Made by a program: the position numbers and the translations under genes
Shown here: in pieces, positions 10,503 to 33,498 of the stretch
How positions within the stretch are numbered: the first letter of the stretch is position 1
Layout: every line of letters begins with the position of its first letter
Source: a virus
Length of the DNA: 50,104 nucleotides
Strand: one strand, 5' to 3'
IMG/VR virus record: IMGVR_UViG_3300030045_000003
Span: 1 to 50,104 of that record
Notes under the pieces: model-generated
What the model saw: the letters and a program-made list of their open reading frames with translations, nothing else
Told to the model about the DNA's origin: nothing
The model's database searches: none

Positions 10503-12233
10503 TTAGATGCTTTCCTTTTGCTTGCGGTGGAAACCGCCCTTGGCGAGTTGGGCCGGGGCCTTGAACTCCTCGTACCACGCGCCGGGACGGCCGGCGTAGG
10601 TGGTCACGTTGTGGCCGGTGTCCGGGTCGATGCGGCGGATCGCGCGCAGACCGTCGCCGGAAGGCTGGCCGATCAGGTTCGAGGCCGCGGCAGCGTCGGC
10701 GTAGATTGCGGCTTCGGCCATGTCGAAGGCCACGGAATCCTTGATCGCCGACAGGTCGGACTTCGCCCAGGTCTTGGAGTGCGGCTGCATCTTGCGCAGC
10801 AGGCGCACGCGGTAGGCCATCGGCGTCTCGCCGTCCATCGGACGCGGCGCCGAGACCGAGTGCATCTGGTACACGCTGTCGGCCTTGGCTTGCGCATCGG
10901 CCATCACTTCGGGGTCGGCATCGCACTTCATCGCGGCGTCCTTCTTGGCTTGTTCTTCCTTCTCGAAAGCATCCTTCTTCGCTTCCGCCTCGGCCTTCTC
11001 GTCGGCGTCCTTCTTGGCGTCGAGCTTGGCCTTTTCTTCCTTTTCCTCGGCGTCTTTCTTCGCCTCGGCTTCCTTCTCGTCGGCATCCTTCTTCGAATCG
11101 CCGGCCAACGTTGCGGCGGGCATGTTCTTTTCGAAGGCGTCGAAGCGGGAGGTCACGCTGTCCAGGCGGGCCGCGAAGCCGCTGCTCATGGCCGCAATGG
11201 CCTCCATGACGGTGGAGAGCGAAGCGCCGGCCGGGTCATTCCCGGAGGCTGCGGTCGCGACTTGATCGGGCATGCTTTGTACCTCTTTCAGTTGAACGCC
11301 CATCGGCGGGCCACCTTTGTCCCACACGCCCAATTCGCATACCGCGAGGTGGTCTAGTAGAACCGGATTGCCCTCTATCAGTAGGGGCGCGTCATCGTTG
11401 AGCGGGACTTTAACATTCCCGCTGGATTTCACAAATACGAATCCGGGAGACGTGCTCAATTGCAGCTCCGTCATTTCCCGGGCTGCGTCCATATCGAGGA
11501 TTCGGGCGATGCCCCAGGCGTCCGCGCCGTTGATGTACGGCATGACGATGGTGCCGACGTTGGACTCCCGATAGGACTTGGTGTCCAGCATGCTTTTCTC
11601 GGGGTGCAGCCACACCACCGGCAGGCCGTTGCAGCGCTCCAGGAACTCGGGCGTCAGCACCAGGGATTCATCGCGCCAAGCGTATTCGGCCTCGATCTTC
11701 TCGCCGTTCTCGTCCTCGCGTTCCTTGCGGTAGGCGATGCCCGTGCCGGTGATGCGCAGGGCGAAGTAGACCGAATTCCCGAACGCCTGCGGGCTGGGCA
11801 GGTCGCCGTCGCGGATCAGCTTTGCGAGGTCGGTTTCAGTGTGGGCGGCGGCGATTCGGAAAGCTCGGTCGATTCCGGGATGGAGCGGGGCCGGCGCTTC
11901 TTCGGGGCGGCACCAGGCGTATCCGGTGCTTTCGTCGCACAGCGTGACCTCGAACTTTGCCACTCCTTTGGCAACGAACGTAACAAATCCCTCAGCCTCA
12001 TGAAGGCGTTCCAGCCCGCCCTCGAAGGCTATTCCTGTTTCTTCAAAAAGCTCGCGGATAGCGGCTTCTTGAGGGGATTCTCCGACTTCAATTTTTCCGG
12101 CGGGGAATGCCCACGCCCCGGGGAAGTCTCCGCCATCACCCCTCCTTAGGAGTAGAGTCTCGCCATCGTCCGAGACGAGCATGATCCCGGCCGCATGAGC
12201 GCCAGTTTGATTTGGGTTACCTTGCTCATCCAT
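10503..12233 (-). CDS. NUDIX hydrolase fused to prohead protease/scaffold (DUF2213-type)
   Basis: 576 residues with three parts. Residues about 14-110 are a complete NUDIX domain: the box Gx5Ex7REUxEExGU is met exactly (G46, E52, R60, E61, E64, E65, G67). Residues about 125-330 resemble DUF2213 prohead proteases, with VYFALRITGTGIAYRKE, the segment LPVVWLHPEK with its histidine, and LSTSPGFVF. Residues about 370-450 are a very charged K/E/A coiled coil typical of scaffolds, followed by a C-terminal tail. The protein would template capsid assembly and then be cleaved away. What the NUDIX domain hydrolyses is unknown; a nucleotide or capped-RNA product is possible. The gene starts next to a homing endonuclease gene. 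Confidence 0.85.
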   Translation of the reverse strand: MDEQGNPNQTGAHAAGIMLVSDDGETLLLRRGDGGDFPGAWAFPAGKIEVGESPQEAAIRELFEETGIAFEGGLERLHEAEGFVTFVAKGVAKFEVTLCDESTGYAWCRPEEAPAPLHPGIDRAFRIAAAHTETDLAKLIRDGDLPSPQAFGNSVYFALRITGTGIAYRKEREDENGEKIEAEYAWRDESLVLTPEFLERCNGLPVVWLHPEKSMLDTKSYRESNVGTIVMPYINGADAWGIARILDMDAAREMTELQLSTSPGFVFVKSSGNVKVPLNDDAPLLIEGNPVLLDHLAVCELGVWDKGGPPMGVQLKEVQSMPDQVATAASGNDPAGASLSTVMEAIAAMSSGFAARLDSVTSRFDAFEKNMPAATLAGDSKKDADEKEAEAKKDAEEKEEKAKLDAKKDADEKAEAEAKKDAFEKEEQAKKDAAMKCDADPEVMADAQAKADSVYQMHSVSAPRPMDGETPMAYRVRLLRKMQPHSKTWAKSDLSAIKDSVAFDMAEAAIYADAAAASNLIGQPSGDGLRAIRRIDPDTGHNVTTYAGRPGAWYEEFKAPAQLAKGGFHRKQKESI

Positions 12234-21911: not shown

Positions 21912-22406
21912 TCAGAATTCGATCTCGGACGGGTCGGGTTCGTAGTTTTCGACGGGTGCGCGCGTCAGGCTGCGCTGGTAGGAACGCTCTTTGCTTGCGC
22001 GGATGTTCTCGGATTGCGTCAGCAGTTCCAAGTGACCCGGGCGACGGCAACCCGTGGACTCGCACCGATGCTCGACCTGTAGGCCGCTGGCGCGAAGCTC
22101 CAGGTAGGCCAGATACAGGTCGTCGCGCTCCATCGGCCCCAGGTGGTCCAGCAGGAAGGCCAGAATGTGGGCGCTCAGGCGCTTCTGCTTGCCTCCCAGG
22201 CCGGCAATGCGCAGATCAATCCGCGAGTAGCCAAAGCGGCAGCGCGGGCCGCTCGTGGCGCACCAGCACTCGCCCAGGGCATCGTCGGCACCGTACCATT
22301 GCCATGCGGGCTCAGTGCCGGCCCGCAGCGACTCGGCGGTGACCGGAATCGGCTTCGTCACGGAGTTTAGGCGGGGCTCTCGTCGAACAGCGAGCCGTCC
22401 TGTCAT
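21912..22406 (-). CDS. HNH-fold nuclease-like protein
   Basis: 164 residues if started at ATG 22406; a GTG at 22361 would remove most of the 95-nt overlap with the ParB-like gene and gives 149. The core GECWCATSGPRCRFGYSRI, then SAHILAFLLDHLG, LQVEHRCESTGCRRPGHLEL and TQSENIR, matches the HNH family common in proteobacterial phages, with histidine, two cysteines and the final N. Such proteins may be free-standing homing enzymes or packaging-linked nickases. The gene is followed by a strong terminator. Confidence 0.78.
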   Translation of the reverse strand: MTGRLAVRREPRLNSVTKPIPVTAESLRAGTEPAWQWYGADDALGECWCATSGPRCRFGYSRIDLRIAGLGGKQKRLSAHILAFLLDHLGPMERDDLYLAYLELRASGLQVEHRCESTGCRRPGHLELLTQSENIRASKERSYQRSLTRAPVENYEPDPSEIEF

Positions 22407-24749: not shown

Positions 24750-24755
24750 TTTCGC

Positions 24756-24784
24756 TTGACGGGCAGTCTCGGGTGTCCGATACT
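24756..24784 (+). promoter_or_regulatory. Rightward promoter P3 with operator O4 (recombination genes)
   Basis: TTGACG (24756-24761), 17-nt spacer, GATACT (24779-24784). Operator TCTCGGGTGTCCGATA at 24767-24782. The following leader can form a CTTC/GAAG hairpin and ends in the ribosome-binding site ACCGGAGAAC. The promoter, operator and leader are near-identical to those at 33434-33498. Confidence 0.82.
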
Positions 24785-24819
24785 TCGTTCACTGAAGCAG
24801 TAAGCAACCGGAGAACATC

Positions 24820-28746: not shown

Positions 28747-29154
28747 ATGGACAACGCCATCGCTTGCCCGTACTGCCATGCGCCTGCCCGGCTGGTGTCG
28801 GGTGAGGCGATCTATCCGCATCGGGTCGATCTCTATGACCTGAAGTTTTGGCAGTGCCAACCTTGCGATGCCTACGTGGGTTGCCACAAGGCGGGTGCGA
28901 TGACCGACACGGGCCGCAGCGATGGAACATTCCCGCTCGGGCGCTTGGCGAATGCGGAACTTCGTCGGGCGAAGTCTGCCGCTCATGCCGCGTTCGATCC
29001 GCTGTGGAAGTCGAAGCGCATGAAGCGCCGCGACGCTTACGGCTGGCTCGCACGCGAACTCGGAATCAGTCGCGACAACTGCCACATCGGCATGTTTGAC
29101 GTTGACGCGTGCAGAGCTGTTGTGGCCGCTGCATCGAACTTCAGGAAGGACTGA
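28747..29154 (+). CDS. DUF3268-like zinc-finger protein
   Basis: 135 residues. CPYCHAPARL with C-x2-C, then WQCQPCDAYVGCHK with C-x2-C, form a zinc ribbon typical of DUF3268 phage proteins. The C-terminal half is helical and basic (WKSKRMKRRDAYGWLAREL). Probably binds nucleic acid; function unknown. Its stop lies 1 nt before the next ATG. Confidence 0.75.
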   Translation: MDNAIACPYCHAPARLVSGEAIYPHRVDLYDLKFWQCQPCDAYVGCHKAGAMTDTGRSDGTFPLGRLANAELRRAKSAAHAAFDPLWKSKRMKRRDAYGWLARELGISRDNCHIGMFDVDACRAVVAAASNFRKD

Positions 29155-29155
29155 C

Positions 29156-29551
29156 ATGGACAACGACAAGGGGCTGGGAAGCATGACCAATAGCGCCAGT
29201 GCGGTGGAACGTCTGCGGGCTTCGCTTTTGACATGGGCGGGCCGAGAAGGCTCCATCGTCAATCAAAACGACATCCACGCCGTCCTGGACACCCTCGCCG
29301 AAAAGGAGTCCGAGCTGAAGGGCGCCTACGAGTTGCTGCACGCCACCGAGGACAAGGCTGTCGCCAAGGAGTCCGAAGTGCAGGCTTTGCGGGAGGTCAT
29401 CGACCACACCGTCAAGACCATCGAGAGGCAACTCGACCTGATCGGCGAACGCGCTCCCGGGAAGTTCCTCGACAAGACGCCGGTCATGCGCAGCTTGCAG
29501 GCGCACGTCAAGAGACTGAGCGCCGCCCTCAACCCGAAGGAAGACCAATGA
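29156..29551 (+). CDS. Coiled-coil early protein; gene carries the protospacer-like match to spacer 2
   Basis: 131 residues from ATG 29156, preceded by GGAAGGACTGAC. A second in-frame ATG at 29183 (MTNSASAVERL) also has a purine-rich leader. The protein is mainly helical, with a coiled coil over residues 45-90 (LAEKESELKGAYELLHATED, AKESEVQALREVIDHTVKTI). Bases 29179-29210, over the second ATG, match spacer 2 of the phage's own mini-array in 30 of 32 positions on the opposite strand. Homologues of this gene in related phages are therefore the probable target. Function of the protein is unknown. Confidence 0.7.
   Translation: MDNDKGLGSMTNSASAVERLRASLLTWAGREGSIVNQNDIHAVLDTLAEKESELKGAYELLHATEDKAVAKESEVQALREVIDHTVKTIERQLDLIGERAPGKFLDKTPVMRSLQAHVKRLSAALNPKEDQ
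29179..29210 (-). other. Protospacer-like match to spacer 2 of the phage mini-array
   Basis: The minus strand here equals spacer 2 (31577-31608) except at spacer positions 22 (C in spacer, T here) and 32 (G in spacer, T here). The PAM-proximal seed is perfect. The two bases 5' of it on the minus strand are AC, not the CC preferred by type I-F. One mismatch changes Asn to Asp in the encoded protein, as expected between homologous alleles. Confidence 0.88.
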
Positions 29552-29763: not shown

Positions 29764-30247
29764 CACCCCCGCCCCTGGCGAGCCGATCAGCTTGCCTGAG
29801 CCATCTCCCATCGTCGGCGAAGCCGGCCGTAACAGCGTTCGCTGGGGTCTCGGCTACACCGCCGCTCAAGTCCGCAACATCGTTGCAGCCGACCGCGCCC
29901 ATGGTGCTGCGAGCCCTGACGTGACAAAGATGTTGGAGGCGTTGAAACTCGCTCGTCGCACGCTGTCAATGATGAAGCCTTGGGATGCCTACGACGCGGA
30001 GTTGCTTCAGAAGGCAGTCGCCGCCATCGACGCTCTCGGTGCTGCCGCAACCCAGGCGAGGGCTGCTGTGGGGACAGAGCATGGGCGCCGGCTAGTGCGC
30101 GCCCTGGTTCGTGCGGCATGTCTGCAAGAGAGAGAGCCCAGCGAAAAGAACCAAAACGCATACCACTCGGCGCGCGAGACGGTCGAAGCCGCACTCTCTG
30201 CGCAGACCCCTGGCGAGGGGTGGACGGCAAAGGACTCCGAAAAATGA
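29756..30247 (+). CDS. Early protein upstream of the TnpB-like gene, unknown
   Basis: 163 residues. A Pro-rich start is followed by helices (YTAAQVRNIVAADRAHG, VTKMLEALKLARRTLSMM, QKAVAAIDALGAAATQ). No catalytic motif. Its last codons overlap the TnpB-like start (ATGA at 30244-30247), so the TnpB-like protein is translated by coupling to this gene. This argues that TnpB is now part of the phage operon rather than an independent transposon. Confidence 0.62.
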   Translation: MNDTPAPGEPISLPEPSPIVGEAGRNSVRWGLGYTAAQVRNIVAADRAHGAASPDVTKMLEALKLARRTLSMMKPWDAYDAELLQKAVAAIDALGAAATQARAAVGTEHGRRLVRALVRAACLQEREPSEKNQNAYHSARETVEAALSAQTPGEGWTAKDSEK

Positions 30248-31344
30248 TCAAGACCCTCCAAGTTCGGGTCAAGGACAAGCATGCGTCCTTGCTGGCAGCG
30301 ATGGCGAGAAACGTCAACACCTGTTGGAACTACTGCAACGAGACCAGCCAGAAGGCGATCCGGGATCGCCGGCAGTTCCTGAGCGGCTATGACCTGCAGA
30401 AGCTCACCGCTGGGTTCACCGCTTGCGATGGTGTTGAGATCGGCGCCGGTACGGTAAATCTGGTGTGCGTCGAGTACGCAAACCGTCGCCGTCAATTCAA
30501 GCGCCAACGGCTCAACTGGCGCGTTTCGAACAAGAACTCTTCCCGCTACTCGCTTGGATGGGTTCCCATGAAAAGCACGGAGATCAGGTATCGGTCGGGC
30601 CAGATCGTCTATGCAGGAGTGGCGTTCAGCCTGTGGGATAGCTACGGTCTGGGCGACTACGCGCTCCGCGCCGGTTCCTTCTCTGAAGACGCACGCGGCC
30701 GGTGGTATTTCAACGTCGCTGTCGAGGTAGCAGCCACCAAGAGCGAGGGCACCAAGGCCGTCGGCATCGACCTAGGTCTGAAGACCGCCGTCACCTGTTC
30801 GGACGGCCAGACTTTCACGGGCCGGCTGTACCGCGCCAGCGAGGCAAAGCTCGCCAAGGCCCAACGCGCTGGCAAGAAGCGCCTAGCGCGGACGGTGCAC
30901 GCCAAGATCAGGAACCAACGCAAGGACGGACTGCACAAGTTCAGCACTGCGCTGGTGCAGGAAAACGCCGCCATCTTCGTGGGCGACGTGAGCAGCAAGA
31001 AGATGCTCAAGACCAAGATGGCCAAGTCCACGCAGGACGCGGGCTGGGCCATGTTCAAGACCATGCTGGAGAACAAGTGCCGTCAGGCAGGCGTGGTGTT
31101 CGAAGTTGTCAACGAGGCATACACAACCCAAACCTGTTCTCAGTGCGGAAGCATTGAGGGGCCGAGAGGTGTCGCAGGTCTTGGAATAAGACGATGGCGA
31201 TGTTCATGCGGGGTCGAACATGACCGCGACGTGAACTCGGCGCAAAACATCGTCCGAATCGGGCTTGATTCGCTAGCTGTAGGAGCCGCCTTGAGCGGAG
31301 AAGCCAATGTCGATGCGGTGTCGGGCCGCTGCATGGGAGCCTGA
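30244..31344 (+). CDS. TnpB-family RNA-guided nuclease homologue with rearranged RuvC-II site
   Basis: 366 residues. RuvC-I: GIDLGLKTAV with D176. The region 193-240 (SEAKLAKAQRAGKKRLARTV and the following HAKIRNQRKDGLHKFST) is the typical bridge. RuvC-II: where most TnpB have I-x-E-D/N-L, this protein has FVGDVSSKKM with Gly247, so the usual glutamate is missing. A Glu (E291) stands in VVNEAYTTQTCSQCG, where most relatives have Pro. Zinc ribbon: C298, C301, C320, C322. RuvC-III: HDRDVNSAQN with D327/D329. It matches the known TnpB lineages with a rearranged catalytic site, so it may be active; a dead, regulatory form is the alternative. No TnpA or transposon ends are seen. The start overlaps the upstream gene, and a CRISPR mini-array begins 144 nt after the stop. 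Confidence 0.9.
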   Translation: MIKTLQVRVKDKHASLLAAMARNVNTCWNYCNETSQKAIRDRRQFLSGYDLQKLTAGFTACDGVEIGAGTVNLVCVEYANRRRQFKRQRLNWRVSNKNSSRYSLGWVPMKSTEIRYRSGQIVYAGVAFSLWDSYGLGDYALRAGSFSEDARGRWYFNVAVEVAATKSEGTKAVGIDLGLKTAVTCSDGQTFTGRLYRASEAKLAKAQRAGKKRLARTVHAKIRNQRKDGLHKFSTALVQENAAIFVGDVSSKKMLKTKMAKSTQDAGWAMFKTMLENKCRQAGVVFEVVNEAYTTQTCSQCGSIEGPRGVAGLGIRRWRCSCGVEHDRDVNSAQNIVRIGLDSLAVGAALSGEANVDAVSGRCMGA

Positions 31345-31345
31345 A

Positions 31346-31840
31346 ATGGACTACCAAACTCTTGAAGACGAGTTGCGCGCTGTCTGCGTCGCGGCCGATG
31401 CCGGCGCTGGCGGGTGGGTGCGCACGTCGCGCATCCTGGAAGCCATTGCCGCCCCTACGGCACCCCAGGCAGTGGGAGAGCCGGTGGCGTTCACTGCCGC
31501 ACAGGCAGCTCAGAAACTTGGGAAGACCCAAGACGACCCCGAGGATAAGTTTACTGCCGCACAGGCAGCTCAGAAAGTTCCACCGCACTGGCGCTATCGG
31601 TCATGCTGGTTCACTGCCGCACAGGCAGCTCAGAAAACTGCACCAGCAGCGACCGCAGAGCCGAGCGCCGTGGCGGGGGCAAGGGAGCCTCTGACGGATG
31701 AGCAGATTGATGAGGAATACCTCAACGGCGATCTCCAACCTCAACTTTACGACAGGCAAGGCATGTTTCAGGCCGGCGCCCGCTTCGCTGAGCGCTACCA
31801 CGGCATCGCTTCTCCTGCTGGTGATGGGGGAGCGAAGTGA
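31346..31840 (+). CDS. Early protein whose gene contains the CRISPR mini-array in frame
   Basis: 164 residues. The start (MDYQTLEDELRAVCVAADAG) lies one base after the TnpB-like stop. Residues about 1-48 and 98-164 look like ordinary phage protein (for example EPLTDEQIDEEYLNG and GMFQAGARFAERYHG). Residues about 49-97 are the translation of three CRISPR repeats, each giving FTAAQAAQK, and two spacers. Because repeat plus spacer is 60 nt, adding units keeps the frame. The TGA overlaps the next gene's GTG. Whether the full protein is made, or the transcript serves mainly as crRNA precursor, is open. In a host with Cas6f the mRNA would be cut three times here. Confidence 0.7.
   Translation: MDYQTLEDELRAVCVAADAGAGGWVRTSRILEAIAAPTAPQAVGEPVAFTAAQAAQKLGKTQDDPEDKFTAAQAAQKVPPHWRYRSCWFTAAQAAQKTAPAATAEPSAVAGAREPLTDEQIDEEYLNGDLQPQLYDRQGMFQAGARFAERYHGIASPAGDGGAK
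31489..31636 (+). CRISPR. Mini-CRISPR array, type I-F geometry (3 repeats, 2 spacers), no cas genes
   Basis: Repeats at 31489-31516, 31549-31576 and 31609-31636, each 28 bp; spacers at 31517-31548 and 31577-31608, each 32 bp. Repeats 1 and 3 are identical; repeat 2 has one change (C4 to T). Each carries the Cas6f/Csy4 hairpin CTGCCGCACAGGCAG (5-bp stem, 5-nt loop with the G11/A15 pair) at positions 6-20 and the 8-nt handle CTCAGAAA, the layout of classical I-F repeats. No AT-rich leader and no cas genes exist in the genome, so any function needs the host's I-F machinery. Spacer 2 matches the phage's own 29156-29551 gene in 30/32. Spacer 1 has no match I could find here. Transcription would come from operon promoter P4. 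Confidence 0.92.
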
Positions 31841-32475
31841 TCGCAGCGCTCTACGTCGAAACTGACGGCGCGTACTTCGGCCTGCCTGGCGTAGACCCGT
31901 GGGATGAGCCGCGTGATGCGCGGAAGTACGCCGGCCCGCATCCTGTCGTCGCCCATCCGCCGTGCCAGCGCTGGGGGCGCTTCTGGCATGGAAGCACATT
32001 GAAGCCGCATCAGTTCGAGTTGGGCACGGACGGCGGCTGCTTTGCTGCCGCGTTCAGCGCTGTTCGCACGTTCGGCGGCGTCCTTGAACACCCCGCTGAC
32101 TCGCAAGCATGGCCTGCGTTCCACATTGCCAAGCCGCCTCGGACTGGCGGCTGGATTCGTGCGGACACCATCGGCGCGGACGACACCGCATGGACATGCT
32201 GCGTCTACCAAGGTCACTACGGCCACATTGCGGGCAAGGCAACCTGGCTCCTGGCCTGCGGCCTCAAGCGCGAACAGCTTCCCGAGCTGCGCTGGGGCAA
32301 GACAGAACAGCGCATCCACCCGCGCGCCCTGGAGCTGCACGGCTACGAGAAGGCTAGGCGGATCGGAATGATGGCGATGGTCGGCGGAAAGGACAAGACA
32401 CGCATCCGCAACGCCACGCCGCCCGAGTTCCGGCAGGTGCTCATCGACATCGCCAACCTGGCACGGAAGGACTGA
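31837..32475 (+). CDS. Conserved phage protein with a PPCQ motif
   Basis: 212 residues from GTG 31837, overlapping the previous stop (GTGA). It has VVAHPPCQRWGRFWHG near residue 40 and VLEHPADSQAWPAF near 85, recalling the PC and E-N-P-like motifs of cytosine methyltransferases, but no SAM-binding FxGxG motif. Later it has WGKTEQRIHPRALE. The family is common in proteobacterial phage early regions and often annotated as methyltransferase-like; I would not claim activity. The final segment NATPPEFRQVLIDIA is the typical family end. Confidence 0.65.
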   Translation: MIAALYVETDGAYFGLPGVDPWDEPRDARKYAGPHPVVAHPPCQRWGRFWHGSTLKPHQFELGTDGGCFAAAFSAVRTFGGVLEHPADSQAWPAFHIAKPPRTGGWIRADTIGADDTAWTCCVYQGHYGHIAGKATWLLACGLKREQLPELRWGKTEQRIHPRALELHGYEKARRIGMMAMVGGKDKTRIRNATPPEFRQVLIDIANLARKD

Positions 32476-33426: not shown

Positions 33427-33433
33427 TTGGTGC

Positions 33434-33462
33434 TTGACAGGTAGTCTCGGGTGTCCGATACT
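33434..33462 (+). promoter_or_regulatory. Rightward promoter P5 with operator O6
   Basis: TTGACA (33434-33439), 17-nt spacer, GATACT (33457-33462). Operator TCTCGGGTGTCCGATA at 33445-33460, identical to O4. Promoter and leader repeat those of P3 almost base for base. Confidence 0.82.
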
Positions 33463-33498
33463 TCGTTTACCGAAGCAGCAAACCAACCGGAGAACGAC

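What the first reader, a model, noticed from the sequence alone, without database searches (positions are those of the whole stretch)
29179..29210. Spacer 2 matches the phage's own early gene at 30 of 32 bases, with a non-canonical PAM
The match was found by direct reading. Minus strand 29210-29179 equals spacer 2 except at positions 22 and 32. The seed is perfect, but the PAM bases are AC instead of CC. The position-22 change is AAT to GAT (Asn to Asp), the kind of difference seen between homologous genes of related phages. So the spacer probably came from, or is aimed at, a rival phage carrying the sister allele, while the phage's own copy escapes through PAM loss and mismatches. This is strong evidence that the repeats are a real CRISPR array.
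Basis: partly seen in the sequence, partly recalled or inferred. Interest (0 to 1): 0.95.

Follow-up and report, generated by a model that had tools for sequence, protein, structure and literature searches.

The report
Phage CRISPR mini-array near-matching its carrier
This phage carries a tiny borrowed CRISPR memory, two spacers between three type I-F repeats, and one spacer is a near copy of a gene in the phage itself; similar arrangements recur in other phages, in one of which the spacer fits a sister phage better than its carrier, so it is probably a weapon against close relatives.

Summary
Spacer 2 (31577-31608) matches minus-strand 29210-29179 at 30 of 32 bases, differing at positions 22 and 32, with AC where I-F expects CC. 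Chance expectation is about 2e-11. The three repeats are genuine type I-F repeats (Rfam CRISPR-DR4), identical to cellular arrays in 68 genome stretches. The phage has no I-F cas genes. The array lies in frame inside an operon gene (31346-31840).

The sister allele that would prove rival targeting was not found in IMG/VR, GTDB genomes or phage records. 'Escape by PAM loss' is not safe either: one I-F1 system accepts any NC motif as PAM, AC included (PMC7296934).

Other phages support the model. Among short I-F arrays in IMG/VR, seven spacers, this one included, near-match their own contig (25-31 of 32). All seven sites lie 0.15-2.3 kb from the array; six lack CC, the seventh has five seed mismatches. 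One of those arrays hits a sister phage at 29/32 with CC and an intact seed. Verdict: new member of the known mini-array kind, unusually placed in frame.

The parts
31489..31516 (+). CRISPR repeat 1, type I-F, GTTCACTGCCGCACAGGCAGCTCAGAAA
   Evidence: Rfam RF01317 CRISPR-DR4, 47.5 bits, E 4e-8; identical repeat in cellular arrays; 5-bp hairpin
31517..31548 (+). spacer 1, 32 nt, target unknown; contains a perfect 6-bp hairpin CTTGGG-AAGA-CCCAAG
   Evidence: no window match above 20/32; no convincing hit in phages or plasmids; fold
31549..31576 (+). CRISPR repeat 2, one change C4T (TTC to TTT, synonymous in the surrounding ORF)
   Evidence: Rfam RF01317, 44.2 bits
31577..31608 (+). spacer 2, 32 nt, near-match to the phage's own gene
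   Evidence: 30/32 to minus 29210-29179
31609..31636 (+). CRISPR repeat 3
   Evidence: Rfam RF01317, 47.5 bits
29179..29210 (-). self near-protospacer; crRNA 2 would pair with the + (coding) strand; PAM position AC (minus strand 29212-29211)
29156..29551 (+). target gene, 131 aa hypothetical protein, no PHROG; starts directly after the DUF3268 gene 28747-29154
   Evidence: codon score like neighbouring genes
31346..31840 (+). 164-aa operon gene that contains the whole array in frame (repeat reads FTAAQAAQK); starts 2 nt after the tnpB stop and its stop overlaps the next gene by GTGA
   Evidence: flanks score as coding in this frame, the array does not
30244..31344 (+). TnpB-like gene between target gene and array (neighbour, not shown to be part of the system)
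   Evidence: Pfam OrfB_IS605 and Cas12f1-like_TNB

Best explanation
A cas-less type I-F mini-array riding in the early operon of a phage. Proposed working: the operon transcript is cut by the host's Cas6f into two crRNAs, which load the host's Csy complex. crRNA 2 then directs the host's Cas2/3 against a close relative carrying the sister allele of the gene at 29156-29551, excluding or damaging that rival. The carrier is spared, wholly or partly, because its own copy has AC instead of CC at the PAM and two PAM-distal mismatches. Shown: real I-F repeats, no cas genes, the near-match, the non-CC flank, proximity (2.3 kb), and the same anatomy in other phages with one spacer fitting a sister phage better than its carrier. 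Inferred: transcription, processing, a host with I-F, existence of the sister allele, protection of self.
For: Genuine I-F repeats; no I-F cas genes among 75 ORFs; 30/32 match far beyond chance; the differences look like allelic divergence of a coding sequence. Recurrence: in short I-F arrays on IMG/VR contigs seven self near-matches (31, 31, 30, 28, 28, 26, 25 of 32; this one included), other spacers staying near background (at most 22 of 32 in the held-stretch scan), all within 0.15-2.3 kb of the array; flanks CG, CA, AC, AC, CG, TA and CC, the CC site having seed mismatches at 1, 3, 4, 5 and 7. G423's array hits its 70-79% identical sister L126 at 29/32 with CC and a clean seed, own orthologous site 25/32. 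A second cross-contig pair (L111 spacer in L107) is 29/32 with CC, mismatches 4, 6, 10. Mini-arrays targeting related viruses with self loci mutated are established in archaeal viruses (PMC6858448) and reviewed for phages (PMC11656645).
Against: No sister allele for this spacer in any collection searched. Host unknown; I-F in the host not shown. No leader-like flank and no promoter-like site next to the array. AC may be a working PAM in some I-F hosts, and near-matches with a broken PAM can prime new spacers against the carrier (PMC4117759), so the arrangement could harm the phage. The array is held in one assembly only.
Confidence: 0.6

Rival explanations
1. Passive souvenir: the segment R-S1-R-S2-R was captured by recombination from a host array that already held a memory of this phage lineage; the phage is an escape mutant and the array does little or nothing.
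For: No leader; native-type repeats identical to cellular arrays; short phage arrays are thought to gain spacers by recombination with host arrays (PMC6858448).
Against: The reading frame and clean repeats are kept; self near-matches recur close to arrays in other phages, which a random souvenir would not predict; 2153 spacers of cellular arrays with this repeat include nothing like spacers 1 or 2.
Confidence: 0.22
2. RNA anti-CRISPR (Racr-like): the repeats act as decoys that soak up host Cas6f and Cas7f, and the spacer content is irrelevant.
For: Racrs are phage-borne I-F repeats that inhibit I-F (PMC10651486; PMC11656645); the repeat hairpin is intact.
Against: Racrs are solitary repeat units; here there are three repeats and two full 32-nt spacers giving complete crRNAs; a decoy would not need a spacer with a 30/32 match to a sister or self allele.
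Confidence: 0.13
3. Self-regulation: crRNA 2 binds the phage's own gene start without cutting and represses the gene.
For: The site covers codons 8-18, near the start of the gene; crRNA is antisense to the coding strand.
Against: Type I-F is a DNA-targeting system; binding with full Cas2/3 present would risk cutting or priming; other self near-sites lie at varied positions and on either strand of their genes.
Confidence: 0.04
4. Not CRISPR: a coding repeat (FTAAQAAQK) or an assembly artefact.
For: The array is in frame in an ORF; it is present in only one held assembly, the two matching contigs ending before it.
Against: All three repeats pass Rfam's gathering score, two with the unaltered 28-nt sequence of cellular arrays; unrelated 32-nt spacers at exact 60-nt period; array codons do not score as coding while both flanks do.
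Confidence: 0.01

Closest known systems
Virus-borne mini-CRISPR arrays of Sulfolobales viruses SPV1/SPV2 (Medvedeva et al. 2019, PMC6858448)
   Same: 1-2 spacers, no cas genes, spacers aimed at related virus genomes, carrier's own orthologous site altered, targets close to the array
   Different: SPV arrays have leaders and sit between genes; reciprocal targets are known at 100% identity. Here no leader, array inside an ORF, sister unknown
Leaderless phage mini-arrays (comparative survey cited as ref. 58 in PMC6858448; review PMC11656645)
   Same: short, leaderless, cas-less, spacers near-matching genes adjacent to the array
   Different: This one keeps a 30/32 near-match with an intact seed in its own genome and is in frame inside an operon gene; the survey itself was not held, so in-ORF cases there could not be checked
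RNA anti-CRISPRs, Racr (Camara-Wilpert et al. 2023, PMC10651486)
   Same: phage-encoded I-F repeats mimicking the host's
   Different: Racrs are solitary repeats without full spacers; this is a repeat-spacer array
ICP1 phage-encoded type I-F CRISPR-Cas (reviewed in PMC11656645)
   Same: phage-borne I-F array
   Different: ICP1 carries cas and adaptation genes and targets the PLE; this phage has no I-F cas genes

Membership tests
Virus-borne cas-less mini-CRISPR array | One or two spacers between genuine CRISPR repeats on a virus genome | tested here: met
   3 repeats, 2 spacers; circular phage contig with portal and terminase
Virus-borne cas-less mini-CRISPR array | Repeats identical to those of cellular CRISPR arrays | tested here: met
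   68 genome stretches with the exact repeat, many Burkholderiales and Lysobacter
Virus-borne cas-less mini-CRISPR array | No accompanying cas genes | tested here: met
   PADLOC on 75 ORFs: Cas12f-type hits to TnpB, homing endonucleases and one PDC-S07 hit, no I-F cas genes
Virus-borne cas-less mini-CRISPR array | Spacer matches a related virus | tested here: inconclusive
   Only the carrier itself matches; no sister allele found; met in parallel phage G423 against L126
Virus-borne cas-less mini-CRISPR array | Carrier's own site altered so that self is not targeted | tested here: inconclusive
   AC PAM and two mismatches, but AC is functional in one I-F1 system
Virus-borne cas-less mini-CRISPR array | Leader with promoter (SPV type only) | tested here: not met
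   No match to flanks of cellular arrays, no promoter-like site; phage mini-arrays are reported to lack leaders
RNA anti-CRISPR (Racr) | Solitary repeat unit | tested here: not met
   Three repeats in a 60-nt register
RNA anti-CRISPR (Racr) | Inhibits host I-F by binding Cas6f/Cas7f | not testable with these tools
   needs expression assay
Phage-encoded complete type I-F CRISPR-Cas (ICP1 type) | cas genes on the phage | tested here: not met

The most novel reading that the evidence does not exclude
Phage I-F mini-arrays are linked poison-antidote elements that behave like RNA-guided homing or marker-exclusion elements: the spacer cuts the sister allele of a gene next to the array's own locus, the carrier's copy of that gene is the altered antidote, and tight linkage (here 2.3 kb, elsewhere 0.15-1.3 kb) lets repair or recombination convert the rival to the array-bearing haplotype.
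Probability: 0.18. Interest if true: 0.8.

Novelty: new member of a known kind. Interest (0 to 1): 0.55.

Why it matters
It is a clean case in a circular phage genome of a borrowed CRISPR memory whose spacer almost matches its carrier. With the six parallel cases found here it gives a testable rule: phage I-F mini-arrays near-match a gene beside them, with a broken PAM or seed in the carrier, and should fit a sister phage better. If true, phages use their host's CRISPR against their closest relatives, and linkage of array and altered target would make it a natural gene-drive-like element. The in-frame placement in a gene shows that I-F units (60 nt, 20 codons; repeat free of stops in all three forward frames) can be carried without breaking an operon.

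Tried and rejected
Chance match: rejected. Search for the rival allele with a degenerate pattern covering synonymous codons and Asn/Asp (serine as AGY only) in GTDB genomes and IMG/VR: nothing. Protein relatives of the target gene and of the array ORF: none in IMG/VR; target gene none in phage records, ORF C-terminal part only E 0.3. Terminase relatives: two contigs are the same phage at 100% but end before the array; the long ones (G005, G006) lack target gene and array ORF. 80 loci with a homologue of the next gene 31837-32475: none carries the target gene, the array ORF or a spacer match above 23/32. Host by spacers: 2153 spacers from cellular arrays with the exact repeat, best 25/32 in the window against 24/32 for the reversed control, not convincing. 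Host by prophage terminase in 399 genomes of one order: best 48-49% identity, no close kin. Spacer 1 target: none. Sister phages of four of the parallel self-sites in phage records: none (the segments for L126 and L146 were not included). Anti-sense RNA regulation considered and set aside because I-F targets DNA.

Full report
What is there. The window is a circular phage contig (127-nt identical ends) with portal and large terminase genes, no near relative among deposited phages for its early region, and a terminase at most 53% identical to theirs. The same phage is present at 100% identity in two other IMG/VR contigs, which stop before the array. At 31489-31636 are three copies of a 28-nt repeat at an exact 60-nt period with two 32-nt spacers. 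All three repeats pass Rfam's score for CRISPR-DR4, and the identical sequence occurs in 68 genome stretches of Burkholderiales, Lysobacter, Iodobacter, Shewanella and others, mostly long arrays. Orientation is that of I-F: the 8-nt handle CTCAGAAA precedes each spacer.

The match. Spacer 2 equals minus 29210-29179 at 30 of 32 bases, with differences at 22 and 32 and AC in the PAM position. This is not chance: the expectation is 2.5e-11, and 2153 genuine spacers from cellular arrays with the same repeat reach at most 25/32 in this window. The site lies at codons 8-18 of a 131-aa gene of unknown function (29156-29551). In codons, the differences are GGA/GGC (both Gly) and AAT/GAT (Asn/Asp), and a CC PAM in a donor would need only CGT/CGG (both Arg). 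That is what an allele of the same gene in a sister phage would look like. The donor's PAM is inferred, not seen.

What could not be shown. No allele of this kind turned up in IMG/VR, in one genome per species of GTDB, or in deposited phages. The claim that self escapes by PAM loss also needs care. The P. aeruginosa Csy complex needs GG on the target strand for tight binding (PMC4344526), and in P. atrosepticum a changed -1 PAM base stopped interference but triggered priming (PMC4117759). In the Aggregatibacter I-F1 system, however, any NC dinucleotide works (PMC7296934), and AC is one of them. The two mismatches are PAM-distal and the seed is intact, so in some hosts the self site might be cut.

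The pattern is general. I collected IMG/VR stretches with I-F-type repeats (63), extracted their spacers, and fetched whole contigs for 15 of the records with short arrays. Self-matches are bimodal: in the held stretches five of 299 spacers reach 26-31 of 32 while the rest stay at 22 or below, the level of reversed controls (L139, whose array is duplicated, left out). With the window and a second array of G423 there are seven. All seven sites lie 0.15-2.3 kb from their array; with each contig's length taken into account the proximity has a combined p of about 8e-5 (rough, since contigs are fragments). Six have no CC PAM (CG, CA, AC, AC, CG, TA); the seventh has CC but five mismatches in the first seven bases. 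In G423 that spacer fits the orthologous site of a 70-79% identical sister contig, L126, at 29/32 with CC and a perfect seed. One more pair of records (L111 spacer, L107 target) shows 29/32 with CC, though with mismatches at 4, 6 and 10. The prediction of the interviral model, better match and intact PAM in the sister, broken in the carrier, is thus met in the parallel G423/L126 case, and the window shows the carrier half of it.

Placement. The array is in frame inside a 164-aa operon gene: the ATG is 2 nt after the tnpB stop, and the stop overlaps the next gene's GTG. Codon scores of the N- and C-terminal parts are like the neighbouring genes (0.32 and 0.29 per codon), those of the array are near zero and of spacer 2 negative. 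So an array has been put into a real gene without closing the frame; the 60-nt unit keeps the frame, and the I-F repeat has no stop in any forward frame. None of the parallel mini-arrays examined has a convincing gene around it. No leader-like flank or promoter-like site was found, so transcription must come from the operon (inferred).

Mechanism and standing. Best reading, 0.6: host Cas6f and Csy complex use the phage's crRNA 2 against sister phages, a form of superinfection exclusion reported for archaeal viruses (PMC6858448) and reviewed for phages (PMC11656645). Rivals: passive souvenir of a host array (0.22), Racr-like decoy (0.13), self-regulation (0.04), artefact (0.01). The most novel reading not excluded is a linked poison-antidote, homing-like element, suggested by the consistent closeness of array and target; Medvedeva et al. 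noted the closeness for SPV and left it unexplained. One literature search for that idea found no paper on mini-arrays as drives, but it covered open-licence papers only.

Noticed in passing
31346-31840: The whole CRISPR array is translated in frame inside an operon gene; the single difference among the repeats (C4T in repeat 2) is synonymous in that frame.
   Followed up: partly
30244-31344: A lone TnpB-like gene (OrfB_IS605, Cas12f1-like TNB domain) sits between the target gene and the array; no TnpA was looked for.
   Followed up: no
31517-31540: Spacer 1 begins with a perfect 6-bp hairpin (CTTGGG AAGA CCCAAG), odd for a crRNA seed; target unknown.
   Followed up: partly
24754-24803 and 33432-33481: Two 90% identical 50-nt copies containing TTGAC...GATACT, like a repeated early promoter.
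   Followed up: no
L112/G423 (IMGVR_UViG_3300045918_000450) 10763-10850 and 21973-22180 of the contig: A phage contig with two separate I-F mini-arrays, each with a spacer near-matching its own genome nearby; one spacer fits sister contig L126 better, with CC PAM.
   Followed up: yes
L146, L113/G424, L118/G427, L126: Further short I-F arrays with a spacer near-matching (26-31 of 32) a gene 0.2-1.3 kb away in the same contig, none with a CC PAM.
   Followed up: yes
L001 4580-4837: IMG/VR contig with a short I-F array followed by an inverted single repeat identical to the window's repeat.
   Followed up: no
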